DNA from: Cucumis sativus
Taxonomy: Eukaryota > Streptophyta > Magnoliopsida > Cucurbitales > Cucurbitaceae
Direction of reading: 5' to 3'
NCBI RefSeq assembly: GCF_000004075.3
Contig: NC_026657.2
Coordinates: forward strand, 30,226,408-30,290,407
DNA: 64,000 nucleotides
The notes beneath the pieces are model-generated. The model ran no database searches, had not been told where the DNA came from, and saw nothing but the letters and a program-made list of their open reading frames with translations. A program made the position numbers and the translations under genes. Positions within the stretch are counted from its first letter, which is position 1, and the number at the start of each line of letters is the position of its first letter. Positions 23,354 to 46,190 of the stretch are shown piece after piece.

Positions 23354-23858
23354 CGAATATGGCATCCCAACTAAGAAACCAAATATGAAAATGAAAAACC
23401 AAAAAGCCCTTTAGATAAATACATGGAAGCCCAACTAAGAAACCAAATATGAAAATGAAAAACCAAAAAACCCTTTAGACAATATATGGAAGCCCAACTA
23501 AGAAACCAAATATGAAAATAAAAAACCCTAAAAACGATCTGTCATTTTTGTGATTTTTTGAAATGAAACGTTTTAATTGGTCATTTCCCTTTGTCACCCG
23601 ATATGGCAACCCAACTCAGAAACCAAATATGGAAAAAGGAAAAACCCTAAAGACATCTATCATCTTCTCCATTTCCTCCCTCAGGTTCTTGTTTGAAACA
23701 ACGGTAGATTGATCTCCAATCTCCACCGCACTCCATTCTTTGCAAGCCTCACCATTCTTCACGGTAAAACTTCACATTTACACTCTATTCTTTTCTATTG
23801 ATTTTAATTTTTGCTCTTTTCTCTTACAGTTAGTATTTTCATCGTAAACATAACAATA
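23354..23858 (+). promoter_or_regulatory. F-box gene 1 promoter and leader: ~62-bp tandem repeats, telo-box, leader intron
   Basis: Three units of about 62 bp based on CCCAACTAAGAAACCAAATA followed by TGAAAATGAAAAACC and CCTTTAGA, plus a fourth diverged unit (CAACCCAACTCAGAAACCAA). The last unit runs into the telo-box AAACCCTAA at 23642-23650, then a pyrimidine-rich leader. A 66-bp intron is inferred from CACG|GTAAAAC at 23764 to CTTACAG at 23829, so translation starts at ATG 23859. The same block precedes all four F-box genes. Confidence 0.65.
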
Positions 23859-25046
23859 ATGGTGGTTTCTGATGTTGTGATTCAAATTCTATCCAAGCTT
23901 CCACCACAATCTCTTCTTCGATTCAAGTCTGTTTGCAAATCCTGGTATCATCTTATCAACCATCCTAAATTTGTAACAAAACATCTCTTAGATTCTTTTC
24001 CCCATAAACATGTCCTCATCAAACGTGCCCTCACCAACCACTCTGGCAAACAAGAACTTGTGTTCTCCATCCTCAAATTCTCTCTCAATGGATCTGTGTC
24101 TATTATGGACATCAATTTGACATTCCAAGAGATCGATCCACTTTTAGAACTTTGTGGCCATTCTCACGGCTTAGTTTGTCTTTCCGATTGTGACGATGCG
24201 TTCCTTGTTAATCCTATGACCAGACAGTTTCATAAACTTCCACCATCGATTCTTATCTTTCGTGGTTGCCATCATGACGATCCTGATTATTACGCTGCTG
24301 CAGCAGTTACTATCGGATTCGGGTATGATGCAAAATCTAGCGATTTCAAAGTTGTTAGAATTGTGAGTTGTCGAGGACAATCAGAATCCAGAATAAGAGT
24401 GGAAATTTATGATTTGAGCAAAGATAAATGGAGAGAAATTGAAGCTCCTGATTTCTGTGGCAGGGCATCATGCAAATCTACATTTGATATGTATCACGAA
24501 GGAATATTTTATTGGTGGGGAGAAGGTGAACCAAGGATTTCTGAAACGGACCATATTATAACATTTGACATGAGTGAAGAGATTTTTGGTAAAGTTTCAT
24601 TACCGGAGAGCTTCGATAACAAAAAACATAAAATAGTTTTAAGGGTTTTGAATAAATCCATAGTTCTTTTTGTTTATCCATATAAAAGTAATGAGACAAA
24701 TATTGGAACCTATGAGACAATTATTGGAACCGATGAGACAAATATTGACATTTGGGAAATGGAGAAGGATGAATTTGGCGTTGTTTCGTGGTCGAAGCTA
24801 TTGACGATTGACCCTCCTTTTGGAGTTGAGCATCCATTGTTGTTTGTAAGCTGTGAAGAACTGTTAATGGAGTCTAGTGAAGGGCATGTGATTATGTATA
24901 ACACGGCAACTCAACTATTCAAAAAGCTTCCAATAGAAGGGGATGTAACTTATGCAAAACCTCACAGATTTGAAGCTCATGATCTTTTTATTGAGAGTTT
25001 GTTATTAGTGGAAGAGAGAAGAGATATGATCAATTATGATTTTTAG
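23859..25046 (+). CDS. F-box/FBA protein, copy 1 of 4 (SLF/SFB-like)
   Basis: Intronless coding region of 395 residues starting MVVSDVVIQILSKLPPQSLL. Residues 2-45 form an F-box (ILSKLPPQSLLRFKSVCKSW) that should bind SKP1 and make this the substrate receptor of an SCF ubiquitin ligase. The rest is an F-box-associated (FBA) domain, with landmarks CGHSHGLVCL, NPMTRQFHKLPPS, GFGYDAKSSDFKVVRI, VEIYDLSKDKWREI and GIFYWWGEGE. The FBA type includes S-locus F-box proteins of S-RNase systems but also many unrelated plant F-box proteins, so function is not fixed by sequence. A hinge at about residues 286-303 carries NETNIGTYETIIGTDETNI, a three-unit repeat varying between copies. Unlike copies 2 and 3 it is not followed by an RNase; a footprint of one remains at 26.1-26.4 kb. 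Confidence 0.9.
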   Translation: MVVSDVVIQILSKLPPQSLLRFKSVCKSWYHLINHPKFVTKHLLDSFPHKHVLIKRALTNHSGKQELVFSILKFSLNGSVSIMDINLTFQEIDPLLELCGHSHGLVCLSDCDDAFLVNPMTRQFHKLPPSILIFRGCHHDDPDYYAAAAVTIGFGYDAKSSDFKVVRIVSCRGQSESRIRVEIYDLSKDKWREIEAPDFCGRASCKSTFDMYHEGIFYWWGEGEPRISETDHIITFDMSEEIFGKVSLPESFDNKKHKIVLRVLNKSIVLFVYPYKSNETNIGTYETIIGTDETNIDIWEMEKDEFGVVSWSKLLTIDPPFGVEHPLLFVSCEELLMESSEGHVIMYNTATQLFKKLPIEGDVTYAKPHRFEAHDLFIESLLLVEERRDMINYDF

Positions 25047-26129
25047 TATTTTCGGGTTTTACTATTGTAAGTCATATTGTTTGATATATGTTTGAGTGAT
25101 ATGAGTTTTAGTATTTTGTCAAACTAGTTTAATTAATGTTTAGATGAAGCAAATGAGGTTTGTTACTTTTGGGGTGGAATGATTATTTTTAACATATAGA
25201 TTTAAGAAATACAAAACCTATCTATAAAACAATCTTTTCTTTTTAAAATTTTTGTTGAAATATTAACAAATTAAGTCAACAAAATTAACAAATGAATAAT
25301 GATTGATCCTAACCACAATAATTTAAATAGAATTAGCATAATGAATTTGAATGCATACTAATAATTAGTTTTTTCTTTAAAAAAATATATACAATAGAAT
25401 TATTATTTTTATTGTTGGCTAATGAATATCGGTTTGCTTATTTCGTTCGTGGTAGCATTGTTAAGAAACCCTTAATTATATCATAAAGTATAAATCAATT
25501 TCATTATTATGATATATTAATAATAGTCTATATTGAATACTCATATATATTATTGTTAATATTGAAATGTATTTAGTGTTACAAATTAGATAATTCCGTA
25601 CTAAAATCCTTGGAAACAAAACTTTTCAAGGAAAAGAAATAAAATATGAATATAAATTGGGAATTCTTATACACTATGTAGTTACTAATAAATAATGTCA
25701 CTTTTGCATTAATTTTTTCATTTGCACTTTGGAGAAAAATCACAAAAAAAAAAAAAAAAGAAAGAACATCTTAAATTTTATTATTTGTGAGTTGCTTTTT
25801 TTTTTTTTAAATTTAATTTAGAAAGTTCGGTCATCAACTTTCAAATACCACACATGGTGATGGTGATCGCTGTAGGCCTATCTCTAACGCTCATTTTCAA
25901 CAACTTCATCGATGACCACCTTGACCAACCTTCGATTGCCACTTACCGACCTTAAAAATATTGATTTAAACATTTTTAGTAAATAAAAAACCAAACTTTT
26001 ACTTTTAAAAATAGTTATTAAACACATTTGTGTTTCTATTTGAAGAAGTATCTATCAGAAGTGTTTAGATAGAAAAATTAATTTTGAAAAAAAACGTTTT
26101 TTTCCGAGGAATTCAAATTACGCACTTTG
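25047..26129. other. 3' flank of F-box gene 1
   Basis: AT-rich, no gene. Shares homology with the 3' flanks of F-box copies 2-4. Its distal part (TTTAGAAAGTTCGGTCATCA near 25820, followed by ATACCACACATGGTGATGG) is shared with the flank of copy 4 near 45340-45390. Confidence 0.6.
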
Positions 26130-26425
26130 TTTATTCATGATAATAAAATCCTTTTCTCATTCTTCTAATTTCTTTTTCTTTTGAGGTCGTTTTATTATTA
26201 CTATTAAATTCTCTTTTTCTCTTTCCATTGCAATTTTAATTACTATGTAGGAAGAGAATTGCTATTTATTGAATCTTATTGTTATATGCGGTAGGATAAA
26301 TTTATTAAAAGAAGAAAAATTGAAATTAGCCAATTATTGAGGTTCCTATTATTATAATGTTGTTTTAGTTTTGCAGTTCCTAAAATGCTTATTTTTTTTC
26401 CTTAATCACTCTTTTAGAATGCATT
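26130..26425 (+). pseudogene. Promoter relic of a deleted T2 RNase
   Basis: This stretch aligns with the region upstream of both intact RNases (about 32970-33210 and 39740-39970). Shared landmarks, in order, are TTATTGAATCTTA, GTTATA, AATTTATTAAAA, TGTTGTTTTAGTTTTGCA, CCTAAAATG and TTTTCCTTAATCAC. Immediately afterwards the sequence jumps to the block that elsewhere lies about 480 bp downstream of an RNase (26430-26690). The simplest reading is a deletion that removed the RNase coding region of this unit. Confidence 0.65.
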
Positions 26426-26429
26426 ATAG

Positions 26430-26690
26430 TAGTTATTGAGTCCAAATGTACTGAACTTTCTCGATGCCCACATCAGAAAAATGGAAGAACAGTGTGAGAT
26501 TTTTCTTTCTATGGGAATTTGGAGAAATGCCAAAGGATGGGAGTTGCCCTTAGCATATGAACTGACAAACAAACATCTCCTCTGCCCTTACAGAAGAAGA
26601 CACACAAAACTTTCAACAAACCAAATATTATCCTTTAGAAATTCAAAAGTTATAGTTTTAAAATTTGGCTTCATTCTTTAAAACATTAAT
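26430..26690 (+). repeat. Duplicated block A (copy 1)
   Basis: About 95% similar by eye to 34640-34905: GAGTCCAAATGTACTGAACT, CATCAGAAAAATGGAAGAAC and AACATCTCCTCTGCCCT are shared. Both contain a short open frame beginning MEEQCEIFLSM, but with no family I recognise and no support for being a gene. It marks the distal end of an RNase-bearing unit. Confidence 0.7.
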
Positions 26691-27245
26691 ACAAAATAGA
26701 TAATTGGTTATTTTGTATATAATAAATTAGTTTAGTTAATTACATTTAATAATTTGTGAACAAAGATTTAGGATAGTTTGAACATAAAATAAATGGAGGT
26801 TAGGTTGTGTGTTTGGACAGTTTTCTTTTGTTTCTTATGGTTGGGTGCAAGTGCAATCCATTAATTCCTCAAAAAATCCCTGCACCAATTTTTCTGTCAA
26901 ATGTTTCATCCTTTTAGAGTTTCTGATTTGCAAATTTTATTTGTTTATTCAATGTTCTATTTTAGTTTAGCAAATATGGGGATGGAGGGGTTAATCGAAA
27001 GAACTTCAGAAACGGCAATATAGCGTGTCTTTATCTTTCTAAAATGCTTATATTATCTTGCAAATTATAATTTGACACGTAATTGATATGGTTGGTGAAA
27101 TGTAAAAAATGTCATACCACTGTTTAGGAACGATGGAGATGTTACTTTGGAATGGGAAAGTGAGATCTAAAAATGACAAATTTTGCCAACTTCTTGTGTA
27201 AACAATACAATTCTAATTCTAAAAAGATTATTAATACATATTTTA
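26691..27245 (+). pseudogene. PHD-gene relic: intron 6 fragment fused to 3' flank
   Basis: 26691-26926 matches PHD intron 6 (about 18957-19158; ATAATTGGTTATTT, TTTAGGATAGTTTGAACATA, TTTTTCTGTCAAATGTTTCA). It then jumps to GAGTTTCTGATTTGCA from before PHD exon 12 (about 20217) and straight into the PHD 3' flank from about 22965 (AATTTTATTTGTTTATT), continuing to GATTATTAATACAT. The second junction lies in a shared TTGCA, suggesting a microhomology-mediated deletion. No coding capacity remains. Confidence 0.75.
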
Positions 27246-27716
27246 ACCAAACTAAGAAGAGATTATTGTAAGATATTATTCAATTTAGATTCTACAGTAA
27301 TGGTATAAAAAAACAGTGAAAAGTGTACTATTTTGGTTTACAAGTAAAAGACAATGTGCACAAATAGTCACACTCACAACAGCCTCCATGCTTTGCCTTA
27401 AAGCATAATTAGTAATAGAGATGGAGAAAGATGCGTAATGATACTCAAAACTTACCTTAAATATCAATCCTTGAAAAGATTCCATTTTTTTTAAACTTCT
27501 CTTTATAAAATATACATCTTTATATGTTTTGCTCATCAACTCTTTGATTTCAAAAACCCTTTTCCTTTAAGAAATTGAAATTGACATTGACATCATTATC
27601 AGAAACCAAAACAATAATGCATGGCCAAAGTCTTTAGGTTTCTTACCTGCCAAGCCAATCCCCCACTGAACTCCCATTTTCCCCCAAGTTCAAATATATA
27701 ACAAAACTTGTAGCTC
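27246..27716. other. 5' flank of the pectinesterase gene
   Basis: Unique sequence beginning where the PHD-flank homology stops (TTAATACAT|ATTTTAACC). Expected to hold the pectinesterase promoter; CAAATATATAACAAAAC at about 27691-27706 is a plausible TATA region just upstream of the start. No other gene seen. Confidence 0.4.
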
Positions 27717-30186
27717 ATGAGGATCAAAACGAACTTCTTTTGGTTCTATACTCTTCTCATTGTAGCTCTTTTCATCACCATTGTCCTGCGTTCATTCCCG
27801 CTTCCCTTGACGGCTATTATTGCCACTGTTGGTCCTCACGACACTGCTTTTGAACTTGGCGTTTTCAGTAGTATAGTGAAAGGGAGTGGTTTGGATGAGA
27901 TTTTATCTCTTGTGACTCAATATCTGTCCAAAACCCAATACCAATGGAGAGATGAGAAAAGTTGTGATGAGAAGAAATGGGACTCCAAGTTGATATCTTT
28001 GTACAATGTTTCACTCACTTTAACTGTTGATTTGAAGGGATGTGCAAATTTCAGCAGCGTACAAACTGCAGTGGATGCTGTTCCTGATTATGGCTCTTCA
28101 AGGACCCTTATCCTAATTGACTCTGGAATCTATAGGTCATTAACTTCCATAACACATTTAAATCTTCCAGCTACATCGATTCTTGGCAAGCGAGGGCAGT
28201 TAAAATATTTTGCTTTCAATAGAAGTTTTTGATTTTGATGTGATTTTAGTCTCTCTTTAACTTCTTCTAAACCATCTTTTATTTTCGTCCTAGAATTTTC
28301 TAAGTCCTATTATTACCTTTATCAAGTTTAGTTAAAACGTTAAATCAAATTTTTATATGGATGTTCTTCTAGACACCCTAAGGATCAATGAACTACTCCT
28401 TAATATGAACAAAAACGTTACGTCTGTCTCGCACTTATTGCCTTGGCCTTGGTATAACGTTAGAGATGTCTTGTCCATCGTGAGATGGTTGTAGCTCTAA
28501 CTCGATGGGCATGACAATTTTTTTTAAAAAAAAATTCTCACCCTTTCGCCAATAATCGCCCTCGGTGGTGCCATCCAATTGGGATATTCAAACATAGTTC
28601 TGTCACAATTTTTGAAAAAACATTGTGATTTTTAAACAAGACATGAAATGTCCTTGAAGTATATGGGTGAGGTTCTTCTTGAAGTGGTACGCTTAAGTAT
28701 CGGGGTGGGAGGGAACCCGAGAGGCCGACCGGTAAAAGGGTGAAAAAAAGTGAAAACCGTGATAGACATTACCATCGGGATCGAACTACGCCTATTTCAC
28801 GATGGGCAAGATGTCCCTAATGTGATATCAAGTCTAAGATTGCAAGTGTGCTATGATATAAGTAAAATGTTGGATTTCATATATTTTTAAGGAGTGAATA
28901 ATTAATCTAGGAGTAGAACCTTTGAGAGATGGCCATCTTACAAAAACCTCGTAATTAAAGGGTATGAGGTTCATAAACTCGCTATTTTTTTCTTTTTTCT
29001 TTTTGTTGAGTTAAAAGAAAAATTGTTGGCAGGGAGAAGGTAGTGATAGAAGCCAACAAAACAAACTTGATAATTGAAGGTCAAGGTTACCTCAACACTG
29101 CAATAGAATGGAATGACACAGCCAATTCCACAGGAGGCACCACTTACAGCTCTTCAGTCACCATCTTTGCTTCAAACTTCATTGCCTACAACATCAGCTT
29201 CAAAGTAACAAAAAAACATCTTCCCTTTTCTTGTTCAACTCTCTTTTTGTAAGCCTCTTCAATCGTTTTTAAAAAGCGTTTTTACGCACTTAGAAGGTAA
29301 ATCAAAATGTGTTGTCTTTATTACTTTTAATCTTTAATGACTGACTTTTCTTTTTGGGGGAAAAGAACACAGCTCCTGAGGCAACTCCAGGGACTGTTGG
29401 AGGACAAGCAGTTGCAGTTCGAATTGCAGGAGACGAAGCTGCTTTCTATGGATGTGGATTTTATGGAGCTCAAGACACACTTTATGATGACAAAGGAAGG
29501 CATTACTTCAAAGAATGTTTCATTCAAGGATCCATTGATTTCATCTTCGGCAATGCTCGATCGCTCTACGATGTATGTAATCATCATTTCTATATACAAA
29601 AGAAAAAAGGGGATTAAAATTAGAAGATTTGTCTGTTTTGGGTAAATGGTTCAGGGTTGTAGGATCAAATCAATAGCAAAGGAAGTGTTGGGTGGTGGGG
29701 TGAGTGGAGCCATCACAGCTCATGGAAGGCAAACAAGAAGTGAGGAAACTGGTTTTGCTTTCATCAATTGCACCATCAGTGGCTCTGGGAAGGTGTGGCT
29801 TGGTCGTGCTTGGGGCGCTTGTGCCACCGTCGTATTCTCTAAAACGTATATGACCGATGTCGTTGCTGTGGACGGATGGAATGACTGGAGAGACCCTTCA
29901 AGAGACCAGTAATATCAGAGTCATTTCTGAGTGTTCAAAAACAATTTTTTCTTCTTTTTTTCACTTAAAAACAAAGTGGTGATGTTTGTTTTTCATTTTT
30001 ATTATCAGGAGTGTGTTGTTTGGGGAATATGAATGCTTTGGAGATGGTGCAAATTATAGGTTGAGAGTGCCATATTCAAAGCAGCTGAATCAAGTTGAAG
30101 CTCAGCATTACTTGGATGTTTCGTATGTTGATGGAAATCAATGGCTCATCAATCAACAAATCAACAGTACTTTGTCAACCATTTAA
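27717..30186 (+). CDS. Pectinesterase (pectin methylesterase), no PRO domain
   Basis: Five exons (27717-28135, 29033-29204, 29366-29572, 29655-29908, 30009-30186) give 409 residues. It removes methyl esters from cell-wall homogalacturonan. Residues 7-24 form a hydrophobic signal/anchor segment. The carbohydrate esterase 8 signature is complete: GGQAVAV with Gln211, [10 protein letters not shown] with Gln233 and Asp234, [10 protein letters not shown] with Asp255, and VWLGRAWG with Arg317 and Trp319. There is no N-terminal inhibitor-like PRO region, so it is a short (group 2) enzyme. Two points are soft: exon 3's acceptor is GGGGGAAAAG, weak in pyrimidines, and intron 1 (0.9 kb) holds a relatively GC-rich segment (about 28660-28830) that looks inserted. 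The gene interrupts the duplicated F-box/RNase array: sequence on each side is contiguous in the unit at 23.2 kb. Confidence 0.88.
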
Positions 30187-30212
30187 TTTCAAATAAATCA
30201 ATGCTTATTTGT

Positions 30213-30851: not shown

Positions 30852-32024
30852 ATGGTGGTTTCCGACGTTGTGATTCAAATTCTATCCAAGCTTCCACCAC
30901 AATCTCTTCTCCGATTTAAGTGTGTTTGTAAATCCTGGTTTGATCTTATCAACCATCCTAAATTTGTAACAAAACATTTCTTAGATTCTTTTCCCCATAA
31001 ACACGTCCTCATCAAACGTGCCCTCACCAATCACTCTGGCAAACAAGAACTTGTGTTCTCCATTCTCAAATTTTCTCTCAATGGATCTGTATCTATTATG
31101 GACATCAATTTGCCATTCGAACAGATTGATCCACTTTTAGAAGTTTGTGGCCATTCTCACGGCTTAGTTTGTCTTACGAATGGTGATGATGTTTTCCTCA
31201 TTAATCCTATGACTAGACAGTTTCGTAAACTTCCGCCCTCGATTCTTATCGTTCGTGGTGGTTATTATGATGATCCTGATTTTTACTCTGCAGTACCATT
31301 TACTACCGGATTTGGGTATGGTGCAAAATCTAGCAATTTCAAAGTTGTTAGAATAGTGAGTTGTCGAGGACCAACAGAATTCACGATGAGAGTGGAAATT
31401 TATGATTTGAACAAAGATAAATGGAGAGAAATTGAAGCCCCTATGTTTTGTGGCAATGCAAGATTTATACCTTCATTTCTAATGTATCACGAAGGAATAT
31501 TTTATTGGTGGGGAGAGGGTGAATCAAGCAGTTCTGATTTTGAAGGAAACCATATTATAACATTTGACATGAATGAAGAGGTTTTTGATAAAATTTCACT
31601 ACCGGGTGGTTATGATGAGAGAAAGCATAAAACAAGTTTAAGGGTTTTGAATAGATCCATTGTTCTTTTTATTTATCCATATAAAAGTAATGAGACAAAT
31701 ATTGGAACTGATGAGACAAATATTGACATTTGGGAGATGGAGAAGGATGAATATGGTGTTGTTTCGTGGTTGAAGCTATTGACGATTGACCCTCCTTTTG
31801 AAGTTGAGCACCCATTATTGTTTGTAAGTTATGAAGAATTGTTAATGGAGTCAAGTGAAGGTCATGTGATTATGTATAATACGAAAACTCAGCTATTCAA
31901 AAAACTTTCAATAGAAGGAGATGTAACTTATGTAAAACCTCACAGATTCGAAGCTCATGATCTTTTCATCGAGAGTTTGGTATCTGTGGAAGGGGGAAGA
32001 GATATGATCAATTATGATTTTTAG
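30852..32024 (+). CDS. F-box/FBA protein, copy 2 of 4 (SLF/SFB-like)
   Basis: Intact, intronless, 390 residues, starting MVVSDVVIQILSKLPPQSLL. F-box at 2-45 (RFKCVCKSWFDLINHPKF), then the FBA domain with CGHSHGLVCLTNGDD, NPMTRQFRKLPPS and VEIYDLNKDKWREI. It is the most diverged of the four: for example VPFTTGFGYGAKSSNFKVVR, CGNARFIPSF (shared with copy 4) and LVSVEGG near the end (shared with copy 3). The hinge has two repeat units (NETNIGTDETNI) against three in copies 1 and 3 and one in copy 4. The T2 RNase gene at 33414 follows 1.4 kb downstream on the same strand. Predicted role: SCF substrate receptor; an S-locus-type target (an RNase) is a hypothesis from context only. Confidence 0.9.
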   Translation: MVVSDVVIQILSKLPPQSLLRFKCVCKSWFDLINHPKFVTKHFLDSFPHKHVLIKRALTNHSGKQELVFSILKFSLNGSVSIMDINLPFEQIDPLLEVCGHSHGLVCLTNGDDVFLINPMTRQFRKLPPSILIVRGGYYDDPDFYSAVPFTTGFGYGAKSSNFKVVRIVSCRGPTEFTMRVEIYDLNKDKWREIEAPMFCGNARFIPSFLMYHEGIFYWWGEGESSSSDFEGNHIITFDMNEEVFDKISLPGGYDERKHKTSLRVLNRSIVLFIYPYKSNETNIGTDETNIDIWEMEKDEYGVVSWLKLLTIDPPFEVEHPLLFVSYEELLMESSEGHVIMYNTKTQLFKKLSIEGDVTYVKPHRFEAHDLFIESLVSVEGGRDMINYDF

Positions 32025-33413: not shown

Positions 33414-34159
33414 ATGACTCAATCTATTTTAATTATTTACTTTTTGAGTTTGGTGGTGTTCGTTAATGGCGGCGTTCCATTTGAGTTCTTCCAATTCGTG
33501 GAACAGTGGGGGCCGAATGTATGTAATACCGGTGCTCGTGTCTCTCCATGTCATACTCCGCCTCAAGCCAAGTTTACTATTCATGGCTTGTGGCCAAGTA
33601 ATCACAGTAATGCTCATCTTCTTTGTCAATCAAAAACGATATATAGCAAGGTTCCCATCTTCTTTAATATTTGTATATGTGTGTTTTTTTCTTCTCCATC
33701 TTTAGCGTTTAACTAATATAACGTTGTAACATGCTTTAATTTTAGGTTATATCACTTGAAGGACAACTGAATATATCTTGGCCAGATTTAAAATATGGAA
33801 ATAACGATAAATTTTGGGGTCATGAATGGGACACTCATGGGAAATGTTCAGATCCTCCTTTTAGCTTATTTCAATATTTCCAAATTTCTTTGAATCTCCT
33901 ACGAAAATTTGATCTATTGACAATCTTAAAGGCTGCTGGGCTCAACCCTCAAACCTCCCAAAACCTTGCAATCCAAAACATCATGGCCCCTATTCAAAGG
34001 ACAACAAAAAAGTATCCCGGAATCCGCTGCAACAAAAATGTTAAAACTGGCAAGTCGCAGTTGAATGAAATTGTACTGTGTTTGGAAAAAGATGGTGCTA
34101 CCCTCATCGATTGTCCTACATTTGTTAGTAACACTTGTGCAAAATCATTTGTATGGTAG
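33414..34159 (+). CDS. T2 ribonuclease, S-RNase-like/RNase MC1-like, copy 1
   Basis: Exons 33414-33650 and 33746-34159 (AAG|GTTCCC...TTTTAG|GTT) give 216 residues. T2 RNases cleave single-stranded RNA in the vacuole or outside the cell. The N-terminus (SILIIYFLSLVVFVNG) is a signal peptide. Catalytic motif I is FTIHGLWPSN and motif II is FWGHEWDTHGKC; both His and the Glu are present, but the usual Lys before the second His (HEWxKHG) is Thr. Sequons are NHS and NIS. By my count the mature protein has 19 Lys/Arg and 13 Asp/Glu (basic, as S-RNases are). The sole intron falls between motifs I and II, the conserved S-RNase/class III position. It sits 1.4 kb downstream of an F-box gene. It could be an S-RNase relative or a defence or senescence S-like RNase. 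Confidence 0.9.
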
Positions 34160-34639: not shown

Positions 34640-34905
34640 TAGCGTTACTGAGTCCAAAAATACGGAACTTTCTTGATGCCCACATCAGGAGAATGGAAGA
34701 ACAGTGTGAGATTTTTCTTTCTATGAGAATTTGGAGAAATGCCAAAGGATGGGAGTTGCCCTTAGCATATGAACTAACAAACAAACATCTCCTCTGCCCT
34801 CAGAGAAGAAGACACACAAAACTTTCAACAAACCAAATATTATCCTTTAGAAATTCAAAAATTGTAGTTTTAAAATTTGGCTTCATTTTCTAAAACATTA
34901 ATACA
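34640..34905 (+). repeat. Duplicated block A (copy 2)
   Basis: Second copy of the block at 26430-26690; shares CATCAG, GAATGGAAGAACAGTGTGAG and AACATCTCCTCTGCCCT. It lies about 480 bp downstream of the intact RNase 1, which identifies the block as an RNase-distal marker. No recognisable product. Confidence 0.7.
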
Positions 34906-36041
34906 AAATAGATAATTGGTTATTTACTATATAATAAATTAGTTTAGTTAATTACATTTAGTAATTTGTGAACAAAGATTTAGGATAGTTTGAACATAAA
35001 TTAAATGGAGGTTAGGTTACAGTTTTTCTTGTGTTTGTTATGGTTGGGTACAAGTGCAATCCATTAATTCCTCCATAACCCCCTGCACCAATTTTTCTGT
35101 CAAATGTTTCGTTCTTTTAGAGTTTCTGATTTGCAATTTCATTCGTGTCTGCAGAATGTGCATCATTATCAATAATAGTAGTGGCCATATTCAGTTTTAT
35201 TAATGGTAATATCTATTTTTGTGTTCTTCTCTGTCACTCTATCTCACAGGAGGGATGTTGGTGGACAAGAGTTTGGAGGCATGTATTGTGCCATATTAAT
35301 TGTCAACTAAGAATCTTAGCTTATCGATGCGACCCATTACCTGTTACAAAGTCTAATAACATACATCTTTCTTTATATTGCACAGCTCATTTGTTGTATC
35401 CGCTGCAATCCTTCAAGTTTTTGGGCAAGATATTGCAGAGCTGCCATTGGTTGCGACAAGTAATGGTAACCATGGCAAGGTCTGAGCAGTCAATTTCATT
35501 TCTTTTTTTGTTTTTTGCTTTTGCCTGTGACAATTACCTTATACTGCGTTCTTTGATTTTTCCCTACACCATGGCTTATTACGAGTTTGTAAAGCAATTT
35601 GGAATGCTTTTGAATTCTTCTTCGACTTTCTAATCAAGAGTTTGCAATCTGTTGGCCATTCTGATTTGACTCTTTTCTACATGTAACGATGATAGGGCTA
35701 CTTCCAAACATTGTTTTCGTGCATTGAGAGGCTGCTAGCTTTCTTGAAAGTCAAATGCCTTGTTCTACCAGCTGCTGAAGAAGCGGAGTCCATTTGGACT
35801 GAAAAATTTGGTTTTGAGAGAATAAAACCAGACCAGGTACATACTTCAAGGATCATAAGAATAGCACATATTCATTATCTGAAACGGTTTGAATTCCAGC
35901 CACGGCTAAATGAAATTCTGTGTCGACTCTCTGCAGCTCAGCAGCTATAGAAGAAGTTGTTGCCAGATGGTGACATTCAAAGGGACATCCATGCTTCAGA
36001 AAACGGTTCCGTCGTGTCGGGTTGTAGGTGCTCCCTTGTGA
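34906..36041 (+). pseudogene. 5'-truncated, internally deleted copy of the PHD/GNAT gene
   Basis: Composite of PHD intron 6 (34906-35118), the sequence around the start of exon 12 (GAGTTTCTGATTTGCA to CATTATCAA, 35119-35172), then intron 16 to the end of the gene (35173-36041, equal to 21668-22528). Exons 17-20 equivalents are present, but everything encoding the N-terminus, both TPL-binding-like modules and the PHD finger is missing. The exon-17 donor has changed from GTCAA|GTAAG to GTCAACTAAG, and exon 18 carries replacements (for example GCAATG to GCAATC). The last exons and 3' region are identical by eye to the functional gene, so the copy looks older at its left than at its right. Not expected to make protein. 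Confidence 0.85.
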
Positions 36042-37370
36042 CCAACCATGGAAGGGTGTGAGGTTCCCTCTAATCTCCCCCTTCCTCTCTCCATTCCTCT
36101 CTTCCACCATATCATTCTGTAGCTTTGTCTGTGTATAGCTTACAAAGTTTTTCCTGTTTTTAGGATATTCAGTAAGGTGAGAGCAGTGGTAGGGTAGCTA
36201 AATATCCATTTTAGTTAATATTACATATTCAAATGTAGCTTTCTCGAACCTTCTCATTTGCCCTTGCCCTTATATAGACGGTCTTGGTAGGTGATGGTTT
36301 TAGGCAAAAACCACTAGCCATTCTAAACACCCTTTTTCCCATTCATGCTTGGTAACCCAATGCGTGCTTGTGAATATTCAACTGCCTAAATATCCCATGT
36401 GTTTATTATATAGTTCATTGTGAGATAGATTTTAGGGGATAATTTTATTATTTACAAATAGAACGACGGTTGCAAATTTTATTTGTTTATTTAATTTTCT
36501 ATTTTAGTTTAGCAAATGTGGGGATGAAGGGGTTAATGGAAAGAACTTCAGAAACGGCAATATAGGGTGTCTTTATCTTTTAAAATGCTTACATTATCTT
36601 GCAAATTCTAACTTGACAGGCAATTGATTAGGTTGGTGAAATGTAAAAAATGTCGGAATGATGGAGAGGTTACTTTGAAATTTGGAATGGGAAAGTGAGA
36701 TCTAAAAATGACAAATTTTACCAAGTTCTTAGGTAAACAATACAATTCTAATTCTAAAAAGATGATTAATACATGTATTTTTGAGTTCAAGTTATTAAGT
36801 GGTAACTATTGTTTTGCAAGTATCTGGGTGCATCTTATAATGGTGGCTCAACATCATCTAGTAGCCGAATATGGCATCCCAACTAAGAAACCAAATATGA
36901 AAATGAAAAACCAAAAAGGCCTTTAGATAAATACATGGAAGCCCAACTAAGAAACCAAATATGAAAATGAAAAAACAAAAAACCCTTTAGACAATATATG
37001 GAAGCCCAACTAAGAAACCAAATATGAAAATAAAAAACCCTAAAAACGATTTGGAAATTTTGTGATTTTTTGAAATGAAACGTTTTAATTGGTCATTTCC
37101 CTTTGTCACCCGATATGGCAACCCAACTCAGAAACCAAATATGGAAAAAGGAAAAACCCTAAAGACATCTATCATCTTCTCCATTTCCTCCCTCAGGTTC
37201 TTGTTTGAAACAACGGTAGATTGATCTCCAATCTCCACCGCACTCCATTCTTTGCAAGCCTCACCATTCTTCACGGTAAAACTTCACATTTACACTCTAT
37301 TCTTTTCTATTGATTTTAATTTTTGCTCTTTTCTCTTACAGTTAGTATTTTCATCGTAAACATAACAATA
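36042..37370 (+). promoter_or_regulatory. PHD-type 3' flank plus F-box gene 3 promoter and leader
   Basis: 36042-36865 duplicates the PHD 3' flank. 36866-37165 holds the ~62-bp promoter repeats; telo-box AAACCCTAA at 37154-37162; leader intron 37276-37341 with the intact CTTACAG acceptor; start ATG 37371. Offset from the copy 1 region is constant at 13,512 from about 23150 onwards. Confidence 0.65.
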
Positions 37371-38558
37371 ATGGTGGTCTCTGATGTTGTGATTCAAATT
37401 CTATCCAAGCTTCCACCACAATCTCTTCTCCGATTCAAGTCTGTTTGCAAATCCTGGTATCATCTTATCAACCATCCTAAATTTGTAAGAAAACATCTCT
37501 TAGATTCTTTTCCCCATAAACATGTCCTCATCAAACGTGCCCTCACCAACCACTCTGGCAAACAAGAACTTGTGTTCTCCATCCTCAAATTCTCTCTCAA
37601 TGGATCTGTGTCTATTATGGACATCAATTTGACATTCCAAGAGATCGATCCACTTTTAGAACTTTGTGGCCATTCTCACGGCTTAGTTTGTCTTTCCGAT
37701 TGTGACGAAGTGTTTCTTGTTAATCCTATGACCAGACAGTTTCATAAACTTCCGCCATCGATTCTTATCTTTCGTGGTTGCCATCATGACGATCCTGATC
37801 ATTACTCTGCAATACCATTTACTATCGGATTCGGGTATGATGCAAAATCTAGCGATTTCAAAGTTGTTAGAATTGTGAGTTGTCGAGGACAATCAGAAGC
37901 CAGGATGAGAGTGGAAATTTATGATTTGAGCAGAGATAAATGGAGAGAAATTGGAGCTCCTGAGATTTGTGGCAGTGCTGCATGCACATGTACATTTGAT
38001 ATGTATCACGAAGGAATATTTTATTGGTGGGGATACGGTGAACCAAGGATTTCGGAAAGGGACCATATTATAACATTTGACATGAGTGAAGAGATTTTTG
38101 GTAAAGTTTCATTACCGGAGAGCTATGATGACAAAAAGCATAAAATAGTATTAAGGGTTTTGAATAAATCCATAGTTCTTTTTGTTTATCCATATAAAAG
38201 TAATGAGACAAATATTGGAATCTTTGAGACAATTGTTGGAACCGATGAGACAAATATTGACATTTGGGAGATGGAGAAGGATGAATTTGGCGTTGTTTCG
38301 TGGTCGAAGCTATTGACGATTGACCCTCCTTTTGGAGTTGAGCATCCATTGTTGTTTGTAAGCTGTGAAGAAATGTTAATGGAGTCCAGTGAAGGACATG
38401 TGATTATGTATAATAATAAAACTCAGCAGTTCAAAAAGCTTCCAATAGAAGGAGATGTAACTTATGTAAAACCTCACAGATTTGAAGCTCACGATCTTTT
38501 CATTAAGAGTTTGGTATCAGTGGAAGGAGGAAAAGATATAATCAATTATGATTTTTAG
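37371..38558 (+). CDS. F-box/FBA protein, copy 3 of 4 (SLF/SFB-like)
   Basis: Intact, intronless, 395 residues, starting MVVSDVVIQILSKLPPQSLL. The F-box and first half of the FBA domain are nearly identical to copy 1, with one F-box-region change (KFVRKHLL for KFVTKHLL). Central patches differ: HHDDPDHYSAIPFTIGFGY, QSEARMRVEIY, APEICGSAACTCTFDM. The hinge repeat has three units (NETNIGIFETIVGTDETNI). The C-terminus (VTYVKPHRFEAHDLF, LVSVEGGKDIINYDF) and the 3' flank match copy 2, not copy 1, so this gene looks like a recombinant. The second T2 RNase follows 1.6 kb downstream. Function as for the other copies: SCF receptor, target unknown. Confidence 0.9.
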   Translation: MVVSDVVIQILSKLPPQSLLRFKSVCKSWYHLINHPKFVRKHLLDSFPHKHVLIKRALTNHSGKQELVFSILKFSLNGSVSIMDINLTFQEIDPLLELCGHSHGLVCLSDCDEVFLVNPMTRQFHKLPPSILIFRGCHHDDPDHYSAIPFTIGFGYDAKSSDFKVVRIVSCRGQSEARMRVEIYDLSRDKWREIGAPEICGSAACTCTFDMYHEGIFYWWGYGEPRISERDHIITFDMSEEIFGKVSLPESYDDKKHKIVLRVLNKSIVLFVYPYKSNETNIGIFETIVGTDETNIDIWEMEKDEFGVVSWSKLLTIDPPFGVEHPLLFVSCEEMLMESSEGHVIMYNNKTQQFKKLPIEGDVTYVKPHRFEAHDLFIKSLVSVEGGKDIINYDF

Positions 38559-40163
38559 TATTTTCGAGTTTTACTATTGTAAGTCATATTGTTTGATGTA
38601 TGTTGTTTGATTGATATGGGTTTTAGTATTTTCCAAACTATTTTAATTAATGTTTAGATGGAGTAAATGACGTTTGTTGCTTAGCTTTCACACAATAAAC
38701 TTGTATTGCTTTTGGGGTGGAATGTTTGTTTTTAAGAAATTCAAAACTTATTTATAAAACCATCTTTTCTTTTTTCAATTTTTGTTGAAATATTAACAAA
38801 TTAAGTTACAAAAAATTAACAAATGAATAACGATTGATCCTAAACCCAATAATTTGAATAGAATTAGCATAATGAATTTAAATCCATATTAATAGTTAGT
38901 TTTTGTAAAATATAGAAAATATAATATAATTACTATTTTTATGGTTAGCTAATAATAATATTAGTTTGCTTATTTGGTTGTTGGTGGCATTTTTAAGAAA
39001 TCCTTAATTTATATCATAACATATGAACCAATTTGATTATTATTATATATTAATAATAGTCTATATTTTTAAATAGTGTATTACTCATATTATTGATAAT
39101 ATTGAGATGTATTTCATGTTACAAATGAGATCATTCTCTTGTGAAATCCCAATTCTTATAGGTCATGTAGTTACAAATCATTGTTAGCTATACAATATTA
39201 TAGTTTTGTTTTCAAGAAAAAGAAATCACTTATTATTAATGTTGAAATGTATCCCACCTATTGTTTTTCTTTTCGAAGAAAAAAAATCAAACACGAAGAT
39301 ATAATGAAAAATGTTATATGTTAGGTATATACAAATAATTGTCAGCTATACAATCATTATATGGCTATTACAAATATCATATTTTTTATTCTCGTAGTAT
39401 TGGTTATTACAACACTTATTAATATTATTACAAAATTATTTTTCATTAAGAAAAATATGTTACTATATATATTATTTTGTTTTCGTTTGCCTCTCATTTT
39501 TTAACAATAATGATTAATGTCACTTTTGCATTAATTTTTTCATATGCACCTTCAATTCTCATTTACCCACTTTGTTTATTCATTATAATATTTCTTTTTT
39601 ATAAAAGCTCCTTTTCTATTCTTCTATTTTATTTTTCTTTTCTACTTGTTTCAGTATTATCATTCAAAACTCTCTCTAATCTCTTCCCATTCCAATTTTA
39701 ATCCTCACCCACAAACATCACATATCATTACTATCTATTGAATCCTAAGGTTATACGTCGTTATATGATTACTATTTATTGAATCTTGCTGTTATACGTC
39801 ATAGAATGAATTTATTAAAAAACGAATAATTGATTTGGTCATAATATAAAATATCATATTGTTTTCTATTTAGGTTTTATTGATGTGAAATAACGTGTTG
39901 TTTTAGTTTTGCACTTTCCAAAATGTATATTTTTTTCCTTAATCACACTATTTTAAAATCCATTATACATACAAATGGATGTAATATCAATTCTTCAAGT
40001 TTAATATTTGTTTTACCTTCGACATTATTAGAATCACTTCTCTAAAAGCACTTCTACAATTTTTGGTATAAGTGACACATCATAAGTCTATATATACCCT
40101 TGTTTTCTTCATTCCGTTCACCTTCTTCTATCTCATTGTTTTGTTCTCTTCTATCAATTCTCA
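38559..40163 (+). other. Spacer between F-box gene 3 and RNase 2, including the RNase promoter
   Basis: AT-rich. The F-box-proximal part matches the flank of copy 2. A TATA box, AGTCTATATATACCC at 40085-40099, lies about 70 bp before the RNase ATG at 40164. The short open frame near 39477-39701 is low-complexity sequence without support. Confidence 0.55.
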
Positions 40164-40905
40164 ATGACTCAATCTATTTTAATTATTTACTTTTTGAGTT
40201 TGGTGGTGTTCGTTAATGGCGGCGTTCCATTTGAGTTCTTCCAATTCGTGGAACAGTGGGGGCCGAATGTATGTAATACTGGCGCTCGTGTCTCTCCATG
40301 TCATACTCCGCCTCAAGCCAAGTTCACTATTCATGGCTTGTGGCCAAGTAATCACAGTAATGCTCATCTTCTTTGTCAATCAATAACGAAATATACCAAG
40401 GTTTCCATCTTCTTTAATATTTGTATGTGTTCTTTTTAATCTATCTTTAACATTTTAACTAATATAACGTTGTAACATGCTTTAATTTTAGGTTTTATTA
40501 CTTGAAAGACAACTGAATATATCTTGGCCAGATTTAAAAGGTGGGATGAACAATGAATTTTGGACTCATGAATGGAATTTTCATGGAAAATGTTCAGATC
40601 CTCCTTTTAGCTTATTTCAATATTTTCAAATGTCTTTGAATCTTCTACAAAAATTTGATGTGTTGGCCATCTTAAAGGCTGCCGGGCTCAACCCTCAAAC
40701 CTCCCAAAACATTGGAATCCAAAACATCATGACCCCTATTCAAAGGACAACCAAAAAGTATCCTGGCATCCGCTGCTACAAAAATGTTAAAACGGGCAAG
40801 TCGCAGTTGAATGAAATTGTACTGTGTTTGGAAAAAGATGGTGCTACCCTCATCGACTGCCCTACATTTGTTAGTAGCACTTGTGCAAAATCAATTGTAT
40901 GGTAG
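40164..40905 (+). CDS. T2 ribonuclease, S-RNase-like/RNase MC1-like, copy 2
   Basis: Exons 40164-40400 and 40492-40905 give 216 residues with the same signal peptide, intron position and Cys pattern as copy 1. Motif I is FTIHGLWPSN; motif II is FWTHEWNFHGKC, with Phe where most T2 enzymes have Lys (Thr in copy 1). Both catalytic His and the Glu remain. By my count 18 basic and 12 acidic residues in the mature part. It differs from copy 1 at 23 residues; 13 of these fall within residues 74-109, between the end of exon 1 and motif II, whereas the first 73 residues are identical. The downstream flank runs into a fragment of PHD exon 12 at 41.1 kb. Likely secreted or vacuolar; activity should be tested before assuming an S-RNase role. 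Confidence 0.9.
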
Positions 40906-41099
40906 AAAGTTGGTTTAGGATGTACTTAAAAACAAACTATTATATACTAAAAAATAATAAATAACATTTTCGTATTATTATGATGGGATGTTGGTTTTTG
41001 GTAACTTGAGAGAAACAAATATTAATAAGACCTTATCTGTTTCTGGTGTTTACTTAATGAATATTGATATTGATATTAACACTCTCTTTCGAGTGTTTA

Positions 41100-41165
41100 C
41101 TTTGTAAATTTTGGCGGAAATATGTTCTCCACAAAGAAGTTTGTTGAGGATAATATTGTCATTTT
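41100..41165 (+). pseudogene. Fragment of PHD exon 12
   Basis: TTGTAAATTTTGGCGGAAAT with GTTCTCCACAAAGAAGTTTG and TTGAGGATAAT matches PHD exon 12 near 20290-20345 (TTGTAAATTTTGCCAGAATA; AAAGTTTGTTGAGCATAAT). It has several substitutions and no exon borders. It shows that PHD-derived sequence followed this RNase too. Confidence 0.65.
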
Positions 41166-42496: not shown

Positions 42497-42532
42497 ACAT
42501 ATAATACTGCCCTTGTTCTTTGATTGTTGAGT
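42497..42532 (+). repeat. Footprint of the pectinesterase 3' flank
   Basis: ATATAATACTGCCCTTGTTC followed by TTTGATTGTTGAG matches 30217-30249, just downstream of the pectinesterase stop. Homology to the F-box unit then continues without a break. This unit therefore descends from one that already had a pectinesterase gene upstream of its F-box gene. Confidence 0.75.
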
Positions 42533-43173
42533 TCAAGTTATTAAGTGTTAACTATTGTTTTGCGAGTATCTCCGTGCATCTTCTAATGGTGGCTCAACAT
42601 CATCTAGCAACTCCTACAAAATTAAATAACACAACAAATTAGAAAATCAATCAGAAAAGCCATTCAGCCGAATATGGCTGCCCAACTAAGAAACCAAATA
42701 TGAAAATGAAAAACCAAAAAACCCTTTAGATAAATACATGGAAGCCCAACTAAGAAACCAAATATGAAAATGAAAAACCAAAAAACCCTTTAGATAATAT
42801 ATGGAAGCCCAACTAAGAAACCAAATATGAAAATAAACAACCCTAAAAACGATTTGTCATTTTTGTGATTTTTTGAAATGAAACGTTTTAATTGGTCATT
42901 TCCCTTTGTCACCCGATATGGCAACCCAACTCAGAAACCAAATATGGAAAAAGGAAAAACCCTAAAGACATCTATCATCTTCTCCATTTCCTCCCTCAGG
43001 TTCTTGTTTGAAACAACGGTAGATTGATCTCCAATCTCCACCGCACTCCATTATTTGCAAGCCTCACCATTCTTCACGGTAAAACTTCACATTTACACTC
43101 TATTCTTTTCTATTGATTTTAATTTTTGCTCTTTTCTCTTACAGTTAGTATTTTCATCGTAAACATAACAATA
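42533..43173 (+). promoter_or_regulatory. F-box gene 4 promoter and leader
   Basis: As in the other units, but with about 60 bp of extra AT-rich sequence between CATCTAG and CCGAATATGG (about 42606-42668). The ~62-bp repeats run to the telo-box AAACCCTAA at 42957-42965; leader intron 43079-43144 with intact CTTACAG; start ATG 43174. Confidence 0.65.
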
Positions 43174-44319
43174 ATGGTGGTTTCTGATGTTGTGATTCAA
43201 ATTCTATCCAAGCTTCCACCACAATCTCTTCTTCGATTCAAGTCTGTTTGCAAATCCTGGTATCATCTTATCAACCATCCTAAATTTGTAACAAAACATC
43301 TCTTAGATTCTTTTCCCCATAAACATGTCCTCATCAAACGTGCCCTCACCAACCACTCTGGCAAACAAGAACTTGTGTTCTCCATCCTCAAATTCTCTCT
43401 CAATGGATCTGTGTCTATTATGGACATCAATTTGACATTCCAAGAGATCGATCCACTTTTAGAACTTTGTGGCCATTCTCACGGCTTAGTTTGTCTTTCC
43501 GATTGTGACGATGCGTTCCTTGTTAATCCTATGACCAGACAGTTTCATAAACTTCCGCCATCGATTCTTATCTTTCGTGGTTGCCATCATGACGATCCTG
43601 ATTATTACTCTGCAATACCATTTACTATCGGATTTGGGTATGATGCAAAATCTAGCGATTTCAAAGTTGTTAGAATTGTGAGTTGTCGAGGACAAGCAAA
43701 ATCCAGTATGAGAGTGGAAATTTATGATTTGAGCAAAGATAAATGGAGAGAAATTGAAGCTCCTGATTTGTGTGGCAATGCGAGATTTATACCTTCATTT
43801 GATATGTGTCACGAAGGAATATTTTATTGGTGGGGATATGGTGAACCAAGGATTAACGAAGTGGACTCTATTATAACATTTGACATGAGTGAAGAGATTT
43901 TTGGTAAAATTTCACTACCGGAGAGCTTCAATGACACAAAGCATAAAATAAGTTTAAGGGTTTTGAATAAATCCATTATCCTTTTTGTCTATCCATTTGA
44001 AAGTAATGAGACAAATATTGACATTTGGGAGATGGAGAAGGATGAATCTAGTGTTGTTTCGTGGTCGAAGCTATTGACCATTGACCCTCCTTTTGGAGTT
44101 GAGCATCCATTGTTGTTTGTAAGTTGTGAAGAACTGTTAATGGAGTCCAGTGAAGGACATGTGATTATGTATAACACGGCAACTCAACTATTCAAAAAGC
44201 TTCCAATAGAAGGGGATGTAACTTATGCAAAACCTCACAGATTTGAAGCTCATGATCTTTTTATTGAGAGTTTGTTACCGGTGGAAGGGGGAAGAGATAT
44301 GATCAATTACGATTTTTAG
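43174..44319 (+). CDS. F-box/FBA protein, copy 4 of 4 (SLF/SFB-like)
   Basis: Intact, intronless, 381 residues, starting MVVSDVVIQILSKLPPQSLL. The first ~150 residues equal copy 1. Central patches differ: YYSAIPFTIGFGYD (as in copy 3), QAKSSMRVEIY, CGNARFIPSF (as in copy 2), NEVDSIITF and ESFNDTKHK. The hinge is shortest, a single NETNI unit (ESNETNIDIWEM). The C-terminus (VTYAKPHRFEAHDLF) matches copy 1. No RNase follows: homology with copy 1's 3' flank ends near 45.6 kb, just before the place where the RNase promoter would start. Predicted SCF substrate receptor; no direct evidence for its target. Confidence 0.9.
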   Translation: MVVSDVVIQILSKLPPQSLLRFKSVCKSWYHLINHPKFVTKHLLDSFPHKHVLIKRALTNHSGKQELVFSILKFSLNGSVSIMDINLTFQEIDPLLELCGHSHGLVCLSDCDDAFLVNPMTRQFHKLPPSILIFRGCHHDDPDYYSAIPFTIGFGYDAKSSDFKVVRIVSCRGQAKSSMRVEIYDLSKDKWREIEAPDLCGNARFIPSFDMCHEGIFYWWGYGEPRINEVDSIITFDMSEEIFGKISLPESFNDTKHKISLRVLNKSIILFVYPFESNETNIDIWEMEKDESSVVSWSKLLTIDPPFGVEHPLLFVSCEELLMESSEGHVIMYNTATQLFKKLPIEGDVTYAKPHRFEAHDLFIESLLPVEGGRDMINYDF

Positions 44320-46190
44320 TATTTTCGGGTTTTACTATTGTAAGTCATATTGTTTGATGTATGTTCTTTGAGTGATATGAGTTTTAGTATTTTTCAAATT
44401 ATTTTAATTAATGTTTAGATTTTGTTACTTAGCTTTCACACAGTAAAATTGTATTGCTTTTAGAGTATAATGTTTATTTTTAATGTATAGATTTAATACA
44501 TAACAAAACTTATTTCTTTTTCAATTTTTGTTGAAATATTAACAAATTAAGTCAACAAAAATAACAAATGAATAATGATGGATTGTAAACACAATAATTT
44601 AAATAGAATTAGCATAATGAATTTAAATGCATATTAATAATTAGTTTTTTCATTAAAAATATATATACAATATAATTACTATTTTTATGGTTGCTAATAA
44701 TATCAGTTTGCTTATTTTGTCAGTGTTGGCATTTTTAAGAAATCCTTAATTATATTATATCACAACCTATAAATCAGTTTCGTTATTATCATATATTAAT
44801 ATTAGTCTATATTGAATACACATATTATTGTTAATATTGAAATGTATTTAATGTTACAAATTAGATAATTCTGTTTTAAAATCCTTGGAAACAAAGCTTT
44901 TTAAGGAAAAGAAATAAAATATGAATATAAATTGAAAATTCTTATACCCAAATATGAATATCAATTGGGAATTCTTATATGCTACGTAGTTACCAATCAT
45001 TGATTGTTACAAAATTCTTATAATTCACTTGTTAATATTATTTCAAAATTATTTTAATTAAAAAATATATTTTTTAATAAGTATATATATTATTTTTTTC
45101 GTTGGCCTCTGATTTTTTAACAATAATGAATAATGTCACTTTTGCATTAATTTTTCATTTGCACTTTGGAAGAAAAATGTAAAAAAAAATACATATATTG
45201 TTTGACAACCTATTTTGTAGTCCATTCATTGTTTTTTATACTCTGGAAGCTTGTGCTTCCTCCTAACTTTTCCATGAGTTTGAATGACAAACATTATTCA
45301 AATCTGTGAATTGCTTTTTATTTTTTCTTAATTTAATTTAGAAAGTTTGTCCATCAACTTTCAAATACTACATATGATGGTCGTTGCAGGCCAATTATTA
45401 CTGTCATTTTTATCATTTTCGATAATTCTATTGACGATCAACTCGATCGGATTGTCATCGACTGACCTTGAAAATATTAATTTAAACATTTTTAATAAAT
45501 AAAAAACCAAACATATAAAAGTAATTATAAAAAAAAACGTTTTTCTCCAAGGAATTCCAATTAAGCACTTTGTTTATTCGTTATAATATTCCAATTAAGC
45601 ACATTAAAAAAGAACTTTTAAAAAATACAATTTGTTTTATTAGAATAGAGAGCCTAAAACATTTTTTCCCCTAAAAACATTTAGAGTTTGAGCTGAGGGA
45701 TTTCCTAAAAACGCAACTTTAGTGAATAGAACTTTGTCATGCATTATTTTAAAATTCTAAACAGAATAAACTAGAATTATTGAAGTTATCAAGTCTAAAA
45801 ACAAATCAAAAATGCTTTCTACAATTTTATCAATCAAAATTAGAAAACAGCATTCAACAAATCCAAGTTCCAAACAAGCCATCCATCCTGACCCTGACGA
45901 AAGAAAAGGTACTACCAAGAGACTAGTAAAAGGTTAGTAGTTTCTAAGCAAAATGGAAGAAGATTGAAGTGTTCCTCAACATAAGATGGAAAAAGAAGAT
46001 GACTGCAAAATCTGGAAAGTAGAACAATCTTCCAGGCCAGAAACTAGAGATGGTTGATTGGCCTTGCCAGCTGACTGATGTTCGGTACCGAAAAATTATA
46101 CTCTCACAGGACTTCGAGTTAAGGAATGAATTACCAAAAATTCGCTGAGGAAGTGAATTTGATGAGTTGGAAGAGAGTTTTGCTTCCTTT
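44320..46190. other. 3' flank of F-box gene 4, array end, PABP 3' region
   Basis: 44320 to about 45600 resembles the 3' flank of F-box copy 1. The array ends there (TTATTCGTTATAATATTCC). The remainder is unique; from about 45900 on it probably holds the 3' untranslated region of the minus-strand PABP gene. No other gene seen. Confidence 0.55.

What the first reader, a model, noticed from the sequence alone, without database searches (positions are those of the whole stretch)
23354..45600. S-locus-like tandem array: FBA-type F-box genes interleaved with S-RNase-like T2 RNases
Seen: four intact F-box/FBA genes and two intact basic, secreted, single-intron T2 RNases, all on one strand, in repeated units ordered F-box then RNase, plus the footprint of a third RNase. 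Known: interleaved FBA-type F-box and class III T2 RNase genes define gametophytic self-incompatibility loci in Solanaceae, Rosaceae, Plantaginaceae and others, where F-box proteins recognise non-self RNases. Inference: if this is a cucurbit, the array may be a relic or a repurposed descendant of an ancestral S-locus in a lineage not known for this incompatibility system. Chance adjacency of two expanded families remains possible.
Basis: partly seen in the sequence, partly recalled or inferred. Interest (0 to 1): 0.88.

Follow-up and report, generated by a model that had tools for sequence, protein, structure and literature searches.

The report
Tandem F-box and S-like RNase array
A plant chromosome segment carries a young tandem array that repeats a pair of neighbours, an F-box gene and a secreted ribonuclease resembling the genes plants use to reject their own pollen, but it looks like a relative of such a locus rather than a working one.

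Summary
In detail: four intact F-box/FBA_1 genes and two intact, basic, single-intron T2 RNases lie on the + strand, F-box before RNase. The 'third RNase' is only an upstream remnant (26131-26427); an unreported RNase exon-2 relic lies at 13526-13738, minus strand.

The spacer between units 2 and 3 is a copy of the 3' end of the neighbouring IDM1-like gene, with shorter remains after unit 1. One ancestral IDM1/F-box/RNase trio was tandemly duplicated, so the interleaving counts as one adjacency.

The RNases meet published S-RNase-lineage criteria (pI 8.9, one intron, no pattern 4); three class I-type controls fail, but seed RNase MC1 passes pI and pattern 4. Both lack the catalytic C3 lysine, two occur in one haplotype, and the copies are young. 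A working S-locus is unlikely; an S-like locus fits best.

RN1/RN2 replacements concentrate between C2 and C3, where S-RNases are hypervariable (13 of 23 in 36 residues; scan P=0.0025; not seen in six control pairs). F-box replacements concentrate mid-protein. This is compatible with, but does not prove, paired diversification. F-box clade, expression and species could not be tested.

The parts
23859..25046 (+). F-box gene 1 (395 aa, F-box + FBA_1)
26131..26427 (+). Remnant of an RNase upstream region; RNase gene itself deleted
26432..26951 (+). Block found 3' of RN1 (34644-35153); its end also matches the IDM1-like region at 18957-19156
30852..32024 (+). F-box gene 2 (390 aa)
33414..34159 (+). 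RNase RN1, exons 33414-33650 and 33746-34159 (216 aa)
34644..35153 (+). Second copy of the 3' block
35170..36779 (+). Truncated copy of the 3' end of the IDM1-like gene
   Evidence: 98.3% to 21661-23788 in the stretch starting here; shared ORF
37371..38558 (+). F-box gene 3 (395 aa)
40164..40905 (+). RNase RN2, exons 40164-40400 and 40492-40905 (216 aa)
43174..44319 (+). F-box gene 4 (381 aa); no RNase found after it
13526..13738 (-). Frame-broken relic of an array-type RNase exon 2
21661..23265 (+). 3' end of the IDM1-like gene and sequence before F-box 1; donor of the spacers

Best explanation
This is an S-like locus, not a working S-locus. One ancestral trio (IDM1-like 3' end, FBA-type F-box gene, class III T2 RNase gene) was tandemly duplicated, probably by unequal exchange, with later loss of one RNase and decay of the IDM1 copies. 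Shown: the gene models, the unit structure, the deletion, three S-lineage sequence criteria, overall purifying selection, and the clustering of replacements. Inferred: the RNases are secreted, and because both lack the C3 lysine their RNA-cleaving activity is reduced or altered; the F-box proteins act as SCF substrate receptors. The most likely link is that they bind T2 RNases of this type in the cytosol, as SLF proteins do, but outside self-incompatibility (about one chance in three). Otherwise the two families are neighbours without a shared job.
For: S-lineage criteria met by RN1 and RN2 (pI 8.9, one intron, no pattern 4) while LE, NW and NGR3 fail on pI (4.60-5.05) and pattern 4. RN1 residues 21-79 match Pyrus S3-RNase best among PDB chains (35.7 bits), narrowly before LE (34.7) and NW (34.4). 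Split {S3, RN1, RN2} against {MC1, LE, NW, NGR3} at 75% support. F-box and FBA_1 in 4 of 4. IDM1-derived spacer and a continuous 4-kb repeat. dN/dS 0.42 for RN1/RN2 and 0.39-0.57 for the six F-box pairs. S-like RNases linked to S-like SLFs away from the S-locus are described in other eudicots (PMC8774079, section 7 read).
Against: On the full-length search the RNases match RNase MC1 best (131.9 bits), and Pyrus S3 is ninth (95.1 bits). The 75% support is weak: seven sequences and a single S-RNase. MC1, a seed RNase (recalled), passes the pI and pattern-4 tests too, so these are class-level signs. SLF-clade membership is untested, so the F-boxes may belong to an unrelated FBA clade. Binding between the two proteins is untested. 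The IDM1-derived spacer was not found between units 3 and 4.
Confidence: 0.6

Rival explanations
1. Chance adjacency. An FBA F-box gene of an unrelated clade happened to lie beside a secreted S-like RNase (MC1-like, defence or seed role), and tandem duplication copied both. The two protein families have no functional tie.
For: One adjacency explains the whole array. MC1 is the best full-length match. F-box genes are a very large family in plants, so one such neighbour pair per genome is not improbable (recalled, not computed here).
Against: The RNases meet three S-lineage criteria, and replacements cluster in one segment of each family, which plain neighbours need not show.
Confidence: 0.3
2. 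A working S-locus haplotype in a plant with S-RNase self-incompatibility: F-box proteins in pollen detoxify non-self RNases from the style.
For: Linkage, intact genes, basic RNases, and replacements concentrated between C2 and C3. Gillenia, a Rosaceae, also has several RNase candidates at one S-locus and a K to T change in two of them (PMC12033343, passages read).
Against: Both RNases lack the C3 lysine. Two RNases 89% identical occur in one haplotype. The four F-boxes are 80-91% identical, and a review gives 9 to 37 SLF genes for type-1 loci (PMC12403065, passage read).
Confidence: 0.05

Closest known systems
S-like loci: S-like-RNase linked to S-like SLF, e.g. Antirrhinum chromosome 7 (PMC8774079, section 7 read)
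   Same: Class III-type RNase tightly linked to FBA-type F-box genes, with no shown self-incompatibility role
   Different: Here the pair is tandemly repeated, with two RNases and IDM1-derived spacer; SLF clade not tested; catalytic lysine lost
Fabaceae S-lineage RNases flanked by SFBB/SLFL-like F-box genes (PMC4451870, passages and section 5 part 1 read)
   Same: Mostly basic, one- or two-intron RNases without pattern 4; motif 1 FTIHGLWPSN occurs several times in the published table, and RN2's WPDLKGG is the motif-2 entry of Tp3; F-box genes nearby
   Different: There F-box genes were sought within 1 Mb; here F-box starts are 5.8-7.0 kb apart
Type-1 S-locus (S-RNase with SLF/SFBB/SFB) of Solanaceae, Plantaginaceae, Rosaceae, Rutaceae
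   Same: Protein families and their linkage; replacements concentrated between C2 and C3
   Different: Two young RNases in one haplotype, no C3 lysine, no evidence on expression or polymorphism
RNase MC1 (Momordica; PDB 1bk7)
   Same: Best full-length PDB match; basic; lacks pattern 4
   Different: 35-36% identical to RN2/RN1 in the alignment; keeps the lysine; set apart from RN1/RN2 at 75% support

Membership tests
S-RNase lineage (class III T2 RNase) | One or two introns | tested here: met
   One intron in each of 2 genes
S-RNase lineage (class III T2 RNase) | Basic protein, pI 8-10 | tested here: met
   8.91 and 8.92; references LE 4.60, NW 5.05, NGR3 5.00, S3 8.99, MC1 9.36
[quoted passage not shown]
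   Absent in both. Six-residue form present in LE, NW, NGR3, absent in S3 and MC1; the four-residue form also hits S3 (CPIK)
[quoted passage not shown]
   FTIHGLWPSN and WPDLKYG/WPDLKGG resemble entries of the table in PMC4451870, but the exact pattern definitions were not seen
S-RNase lineage (class III T2 RNase) | Groups with S-RNases in a tree | tested here: inconclusive
   75% support, 7 sequences, one S-RNase
Functional S-RNase | Active-site residues, including the C3 lysine said to be conserved in all S-RNases (PMC12033343) | tested here: not met
   Lysine is Thr in RN1 and Phe in RN2; the CAS I histidine, the His-Glu pair and the CAS II histidine are kept. The same paper reports K to T in two Gillenia candidates
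Functional S-RNase | A single S-RNase per S haplotype (PMC12403065, passage) | tested here: not met
   Two intact genes in one sequence. Not absolute: Gillenia has several candidates at one locus (PMC12033343)
Functional S-RNase | Pistil expression, high allelic polymorphism, co-segregation | not testable with these tools
   No expression or population data
SLF subfamily | F-box plus FBA1/FBA3 domain, near a class III RNase | tested here: met
   4 of 4 F-box plus FBA_1; F-boxes 2 and 3 end 1.4 and 1.6 kb before RN1 and RN2. Class III status of the RNases is likely, not proven
SLF subfamily | Falls in the SLF clade | not testable with these tools
   No plant F-box relatives in reach: none in PDB at E 0.1, none confirmed in viral or prokaryote contigs
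SLF subfamily | Pollen-specific expression | not testable with these tools
   No expression data
RNase MC1-type enzyme | Nearest relative is MC1 | tested here: inconclusive
   Best by full-length score, but the tree separates them at 75%

The most novel reading that the evidence does not exclude
The array is a living recognition module: F-box and RNase copies that diversify together at their contact surfaces (RNase segment between C2 and C3, F-box middle part), re-used for something other than classical self-incompatibility, such as an interspecific pollen barrier or a toxin and antidote pair, in a lineage not known for S-RNase incompatibility.
Probability: 0.15. Interest if true: 0.8.

Novelty: new member of a known kind. 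Interest (0 to 1): 0.48.

Why it matters
S-like loci are relatives of the loci from which S-RNase self-incompatibility was lost and regained. A compact, repeated F-box/RNase unit with intact genes would let one ask what the pair does when it is not rejecting self pollen. If the source is a cucurbit, it would add a linked pair in a family for which my library searches (only the listed papers seen, several lists cut) showed class III RNases (PMC9250077) but no report of F-box linkage that I saw. Figures, supplements and most subscription papers were not seen.

Tried and rejected
Whole-genome context: no genome is held for this window. F-box relatives: none by phmmer in the PDB at E 0.1; in viral contigs 79 pattern matches, 0 confirmed; in prokaryote contigs 34 pattern matches, 0 confirmed. 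So no SLF tree could be made. RNase fold: the AlphaFold2 model from two sequences has mean pLDDT 34.4 and was discarded; no fold search was run. RNA families: 0 matches at gathering thresholds. Cucurbit origin: not established; G+C of 33.7% and the MC1 match do not decide it. N. alata SF11-RNase was matched, but its letters were never displayed, so it is missing from the tree; so are CalsepRRP, trichomaglin and the non-plant T2 RNases of that list.

The segment borders used were chosen after seeing the differences; only the scan tests correct for that. There the F-box replacement-to-silent scan gives P=0.002, 0.057 and 0.005 in three pairings that share data. dN is not significantly above dS in any segment (RNase residues 74-111: dN/dS 1.43, share of bootstraps with dN not above dS 0.277; F-box columns 146-215: dN/dS 1.00-1.73 in six pairs, shares 0.16-0.49).

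Of 40 ORFs given to Pfam, most had no match; annotation of the flanks is therefore partial.

Full report
Gene content. The window (64,000 bases, 33.7% G+C, no N) holds four F-box genes and two T2 RNase genes on the + strand between 23.8 and 44.4 kb. F-box and FBA_1 domains pass Pfam cut-offs in 4 of 4 proteins, and TIGR01640 in 4 of 4. The RNases are 216 aa, with one intron of 95 and 91 bp and GT-AG ends. The F-box proteins are 80-91% identical in pairs by tblastn; the RNases differ at 23 of 216 residues.

Unit structure. Self-comparison shows a continuous repeat, 21661-25596 against 35170-39136 at 94.8%. The block before F-box 1 holds the C-terminal part of an IDM1-like gene (Pfam IDM1_C, 4.5e-25), and the copy at 35.2-36.8 kb carries an identical short ORF (22183-22434 and 35696-35947). 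The block 3' of RN1 (34644-35153) recurs at 26432-26951, and part of it matches 18957-19156 within the IDM1-like region. After unit 1 a further piece, 26928-27244, matches 36470-36779 of the IDM1-derived copy, followed by a pectinesterase-like gene. No such copy was found between RN2 and F-box 4. The simplest history is an ancestral order of IDM1-like gene, F-box, RNase, duplicated in tandem. The interleaving is therefore one adjacency copied several times, and its repetition is no separate evidence for a functional link.

Losses. In unit 1 the sequence upstream of the RNases (26131-26427) runs directly into the block that follows RN1, so the gene itself is gone. The alignment score, 73.5, exceeds all 500 resampled controls (maximum 34.5). 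After F-box 4 tblastn with the RNases gives only matches with E of 1.4 or more up to the window's end, and no RNase upstream region is seen in 44300-50000.

RNase class. Published rules for the S-RNase lineage are one or two introns, pI 8-10, no amino acid pattern 4, and presence of patterns 1 and 2 (passages read in PMC4451870, PMC4438004, PMC12033343). RN1 and RN2 meet the first three; LE, NW and NGR3 fail on pI and pattern 4; Pyrus S3 and MC1 pass pI and the six-residue pattern 4. Their motif-1 sequence, FTIHGLWPSN, occurs several times in the published Fabaceae table, and RN2's WPDLKGG is the motif-2 entry of Tp3. The exact definitions of patterns 1 and 2 were not seen. By full-length score the closest PDB chain is MC1 (131.9 bits), ahead of NW (125), LE (118.7), NGR3 (104.1), S3 (95.1) and SF11 (73.3). 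By RN1 residues 21-79 alone it is Pyrus S3 (35.7 bits), just ahead of LE (34.7) and NW (34.4). A seven-sequence tree puts RN1/RN2 with S3 against MC1 and the rest at 75% ultrafast bootstrap, which is weak. I take class III as likely, not proven.

Active site. The CAS I histidine, the His-Glu pair and the CAS II histidine are present in RN1 and RN2. The lysine of C3 is Thr in RN1 and Phe in RN2, while 5 of 5 references have Lys. A paper on Gillenia calls this lysine conserved in all S-RNases, reports K to T in two Gillenia candidates and says it may alter activity (PMC12033343, passage read).

Where the copies differ. Of 23 RN1/RN2 replacements, 13 lie in residues 74-109, between C2 and C3 and reaching into C3. 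A scan over window sizes gives P=0.0025 for clustering of replacements and P=0.032 for the replacement-to-silent ratio; silent changes do not cluster (P=0.40). In six control pairs, chosen from the 20 other pairs among the seven sequences, this segment is not faster than the rest (ratios 0.68-1.00, against 5.71 for RN1/RN2). Only one of these pairs, LE/NW, is about as close as RN1/RN2, and no S-RNase allele pair was at hand as a positive control. In the F-boxes replacements cluster at alignment columns about 198-262 (P=0.0005, 0.014 and 0.0005 in three pairings that share data), and the replacement-to-silent ratio peaks at columns 148-248 (P=0.002, 0.057 and 0.005). A review states that HVa and HVb of S-RNases suffice for binding SLFs and that the FD2 part of PiSLF2 mediates binding (PMC12403065, passages read); that columns 148-262 correspond to FD2 is my recollection, not a test. 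No segment has dN significantly above dS, so relaxed constraint remains possible. Gene conversion may also have homogenised the 5' parts: F-boxes 1 and 4 are 99-100% identical from about 23.55 to 24.25 kb, and RNase windows within exon 1 are 96-100%.

Age. dS is 0.13 for the RNases and 0.08-0.24 for the F-boxes. At assumed rates of 5e-9 to 1e-8 per site and year this is about 4-24 million years. The array is young whatever the age of the original pair.

What it is. Linked S-like RNases and S-like SLFs away from the S-locus are known, for example on Antirrhinum chromosome 7, and an S-like SLF from there inactivated a Petunia S-RNase (PMC8774079, sections 7 and 9 and passages read). Such an S-like locus, here tandemly expanded, fits best. 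A working S-locus is improbable because of two near-identical RNases in one haplotype, the missing lysine and the youth of the copies; none of these is decisive alone, since Gillenia shows several candidates at one locus and the same lysine change.

The cucurbit question. PMC9250077 (passages and section 7 read) reports 13-28 T2 RNase genes per cucurbit genome and a class III subclass made of Rosaceae and Cucurbitaceae genes. I saw no paper reporting F-box-linked class III RNases in cucurbits in the listings. PMC5598434 and PMC3120821 gave no passage for cucurbit terms, and the text of PMC8774079 does not name cucurbits. The library is open-licence only, some lists were cut, and supplements were not readable. 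The window's own origin was not established.

Noticed in passing
about 14498-22434 (+): IDM1-like gene (TDBD and IDM1_C domains) directly upstream of the array; its 3' end was copied into it.
   Followed up: partly
13526-13738 (-): Frame-broken relic of an array-type RNase exon 2, outside the reported span.
   Followed up: yes
27714-29909 (+): Pectinesterase-like exons between units 1 and 2 of the array; one of the three matching ORFs is above the Pfam cut-off.
   Followed up: no
23357-23535, 30334-30506, 36869-37038, 42672-42850: A 64-65-bp tandem repeat (2.7-2.8 copies) upstream of each of the four F-box genes.
   Followed up: no
24691-24747: A 21-bp repeat inside F-box 1, in the stretch where the F-box proteins differ in length.
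   Followed up: partly
5963-7492 (-), 12095-12880 (+), 136-584: UDP-glycosyltransferase ORFs in opposite orientations and a 76%-identical DNA fragment upstream of the array.
   Followed up: no
47992-63155: Downstream neighbours by Pfam: RRM protein, aspartyl protease, DEAD-box helicase, Ole e 1-like protein, DnaJ C28 domain; useful anchors for synteny.
   Followed up: no
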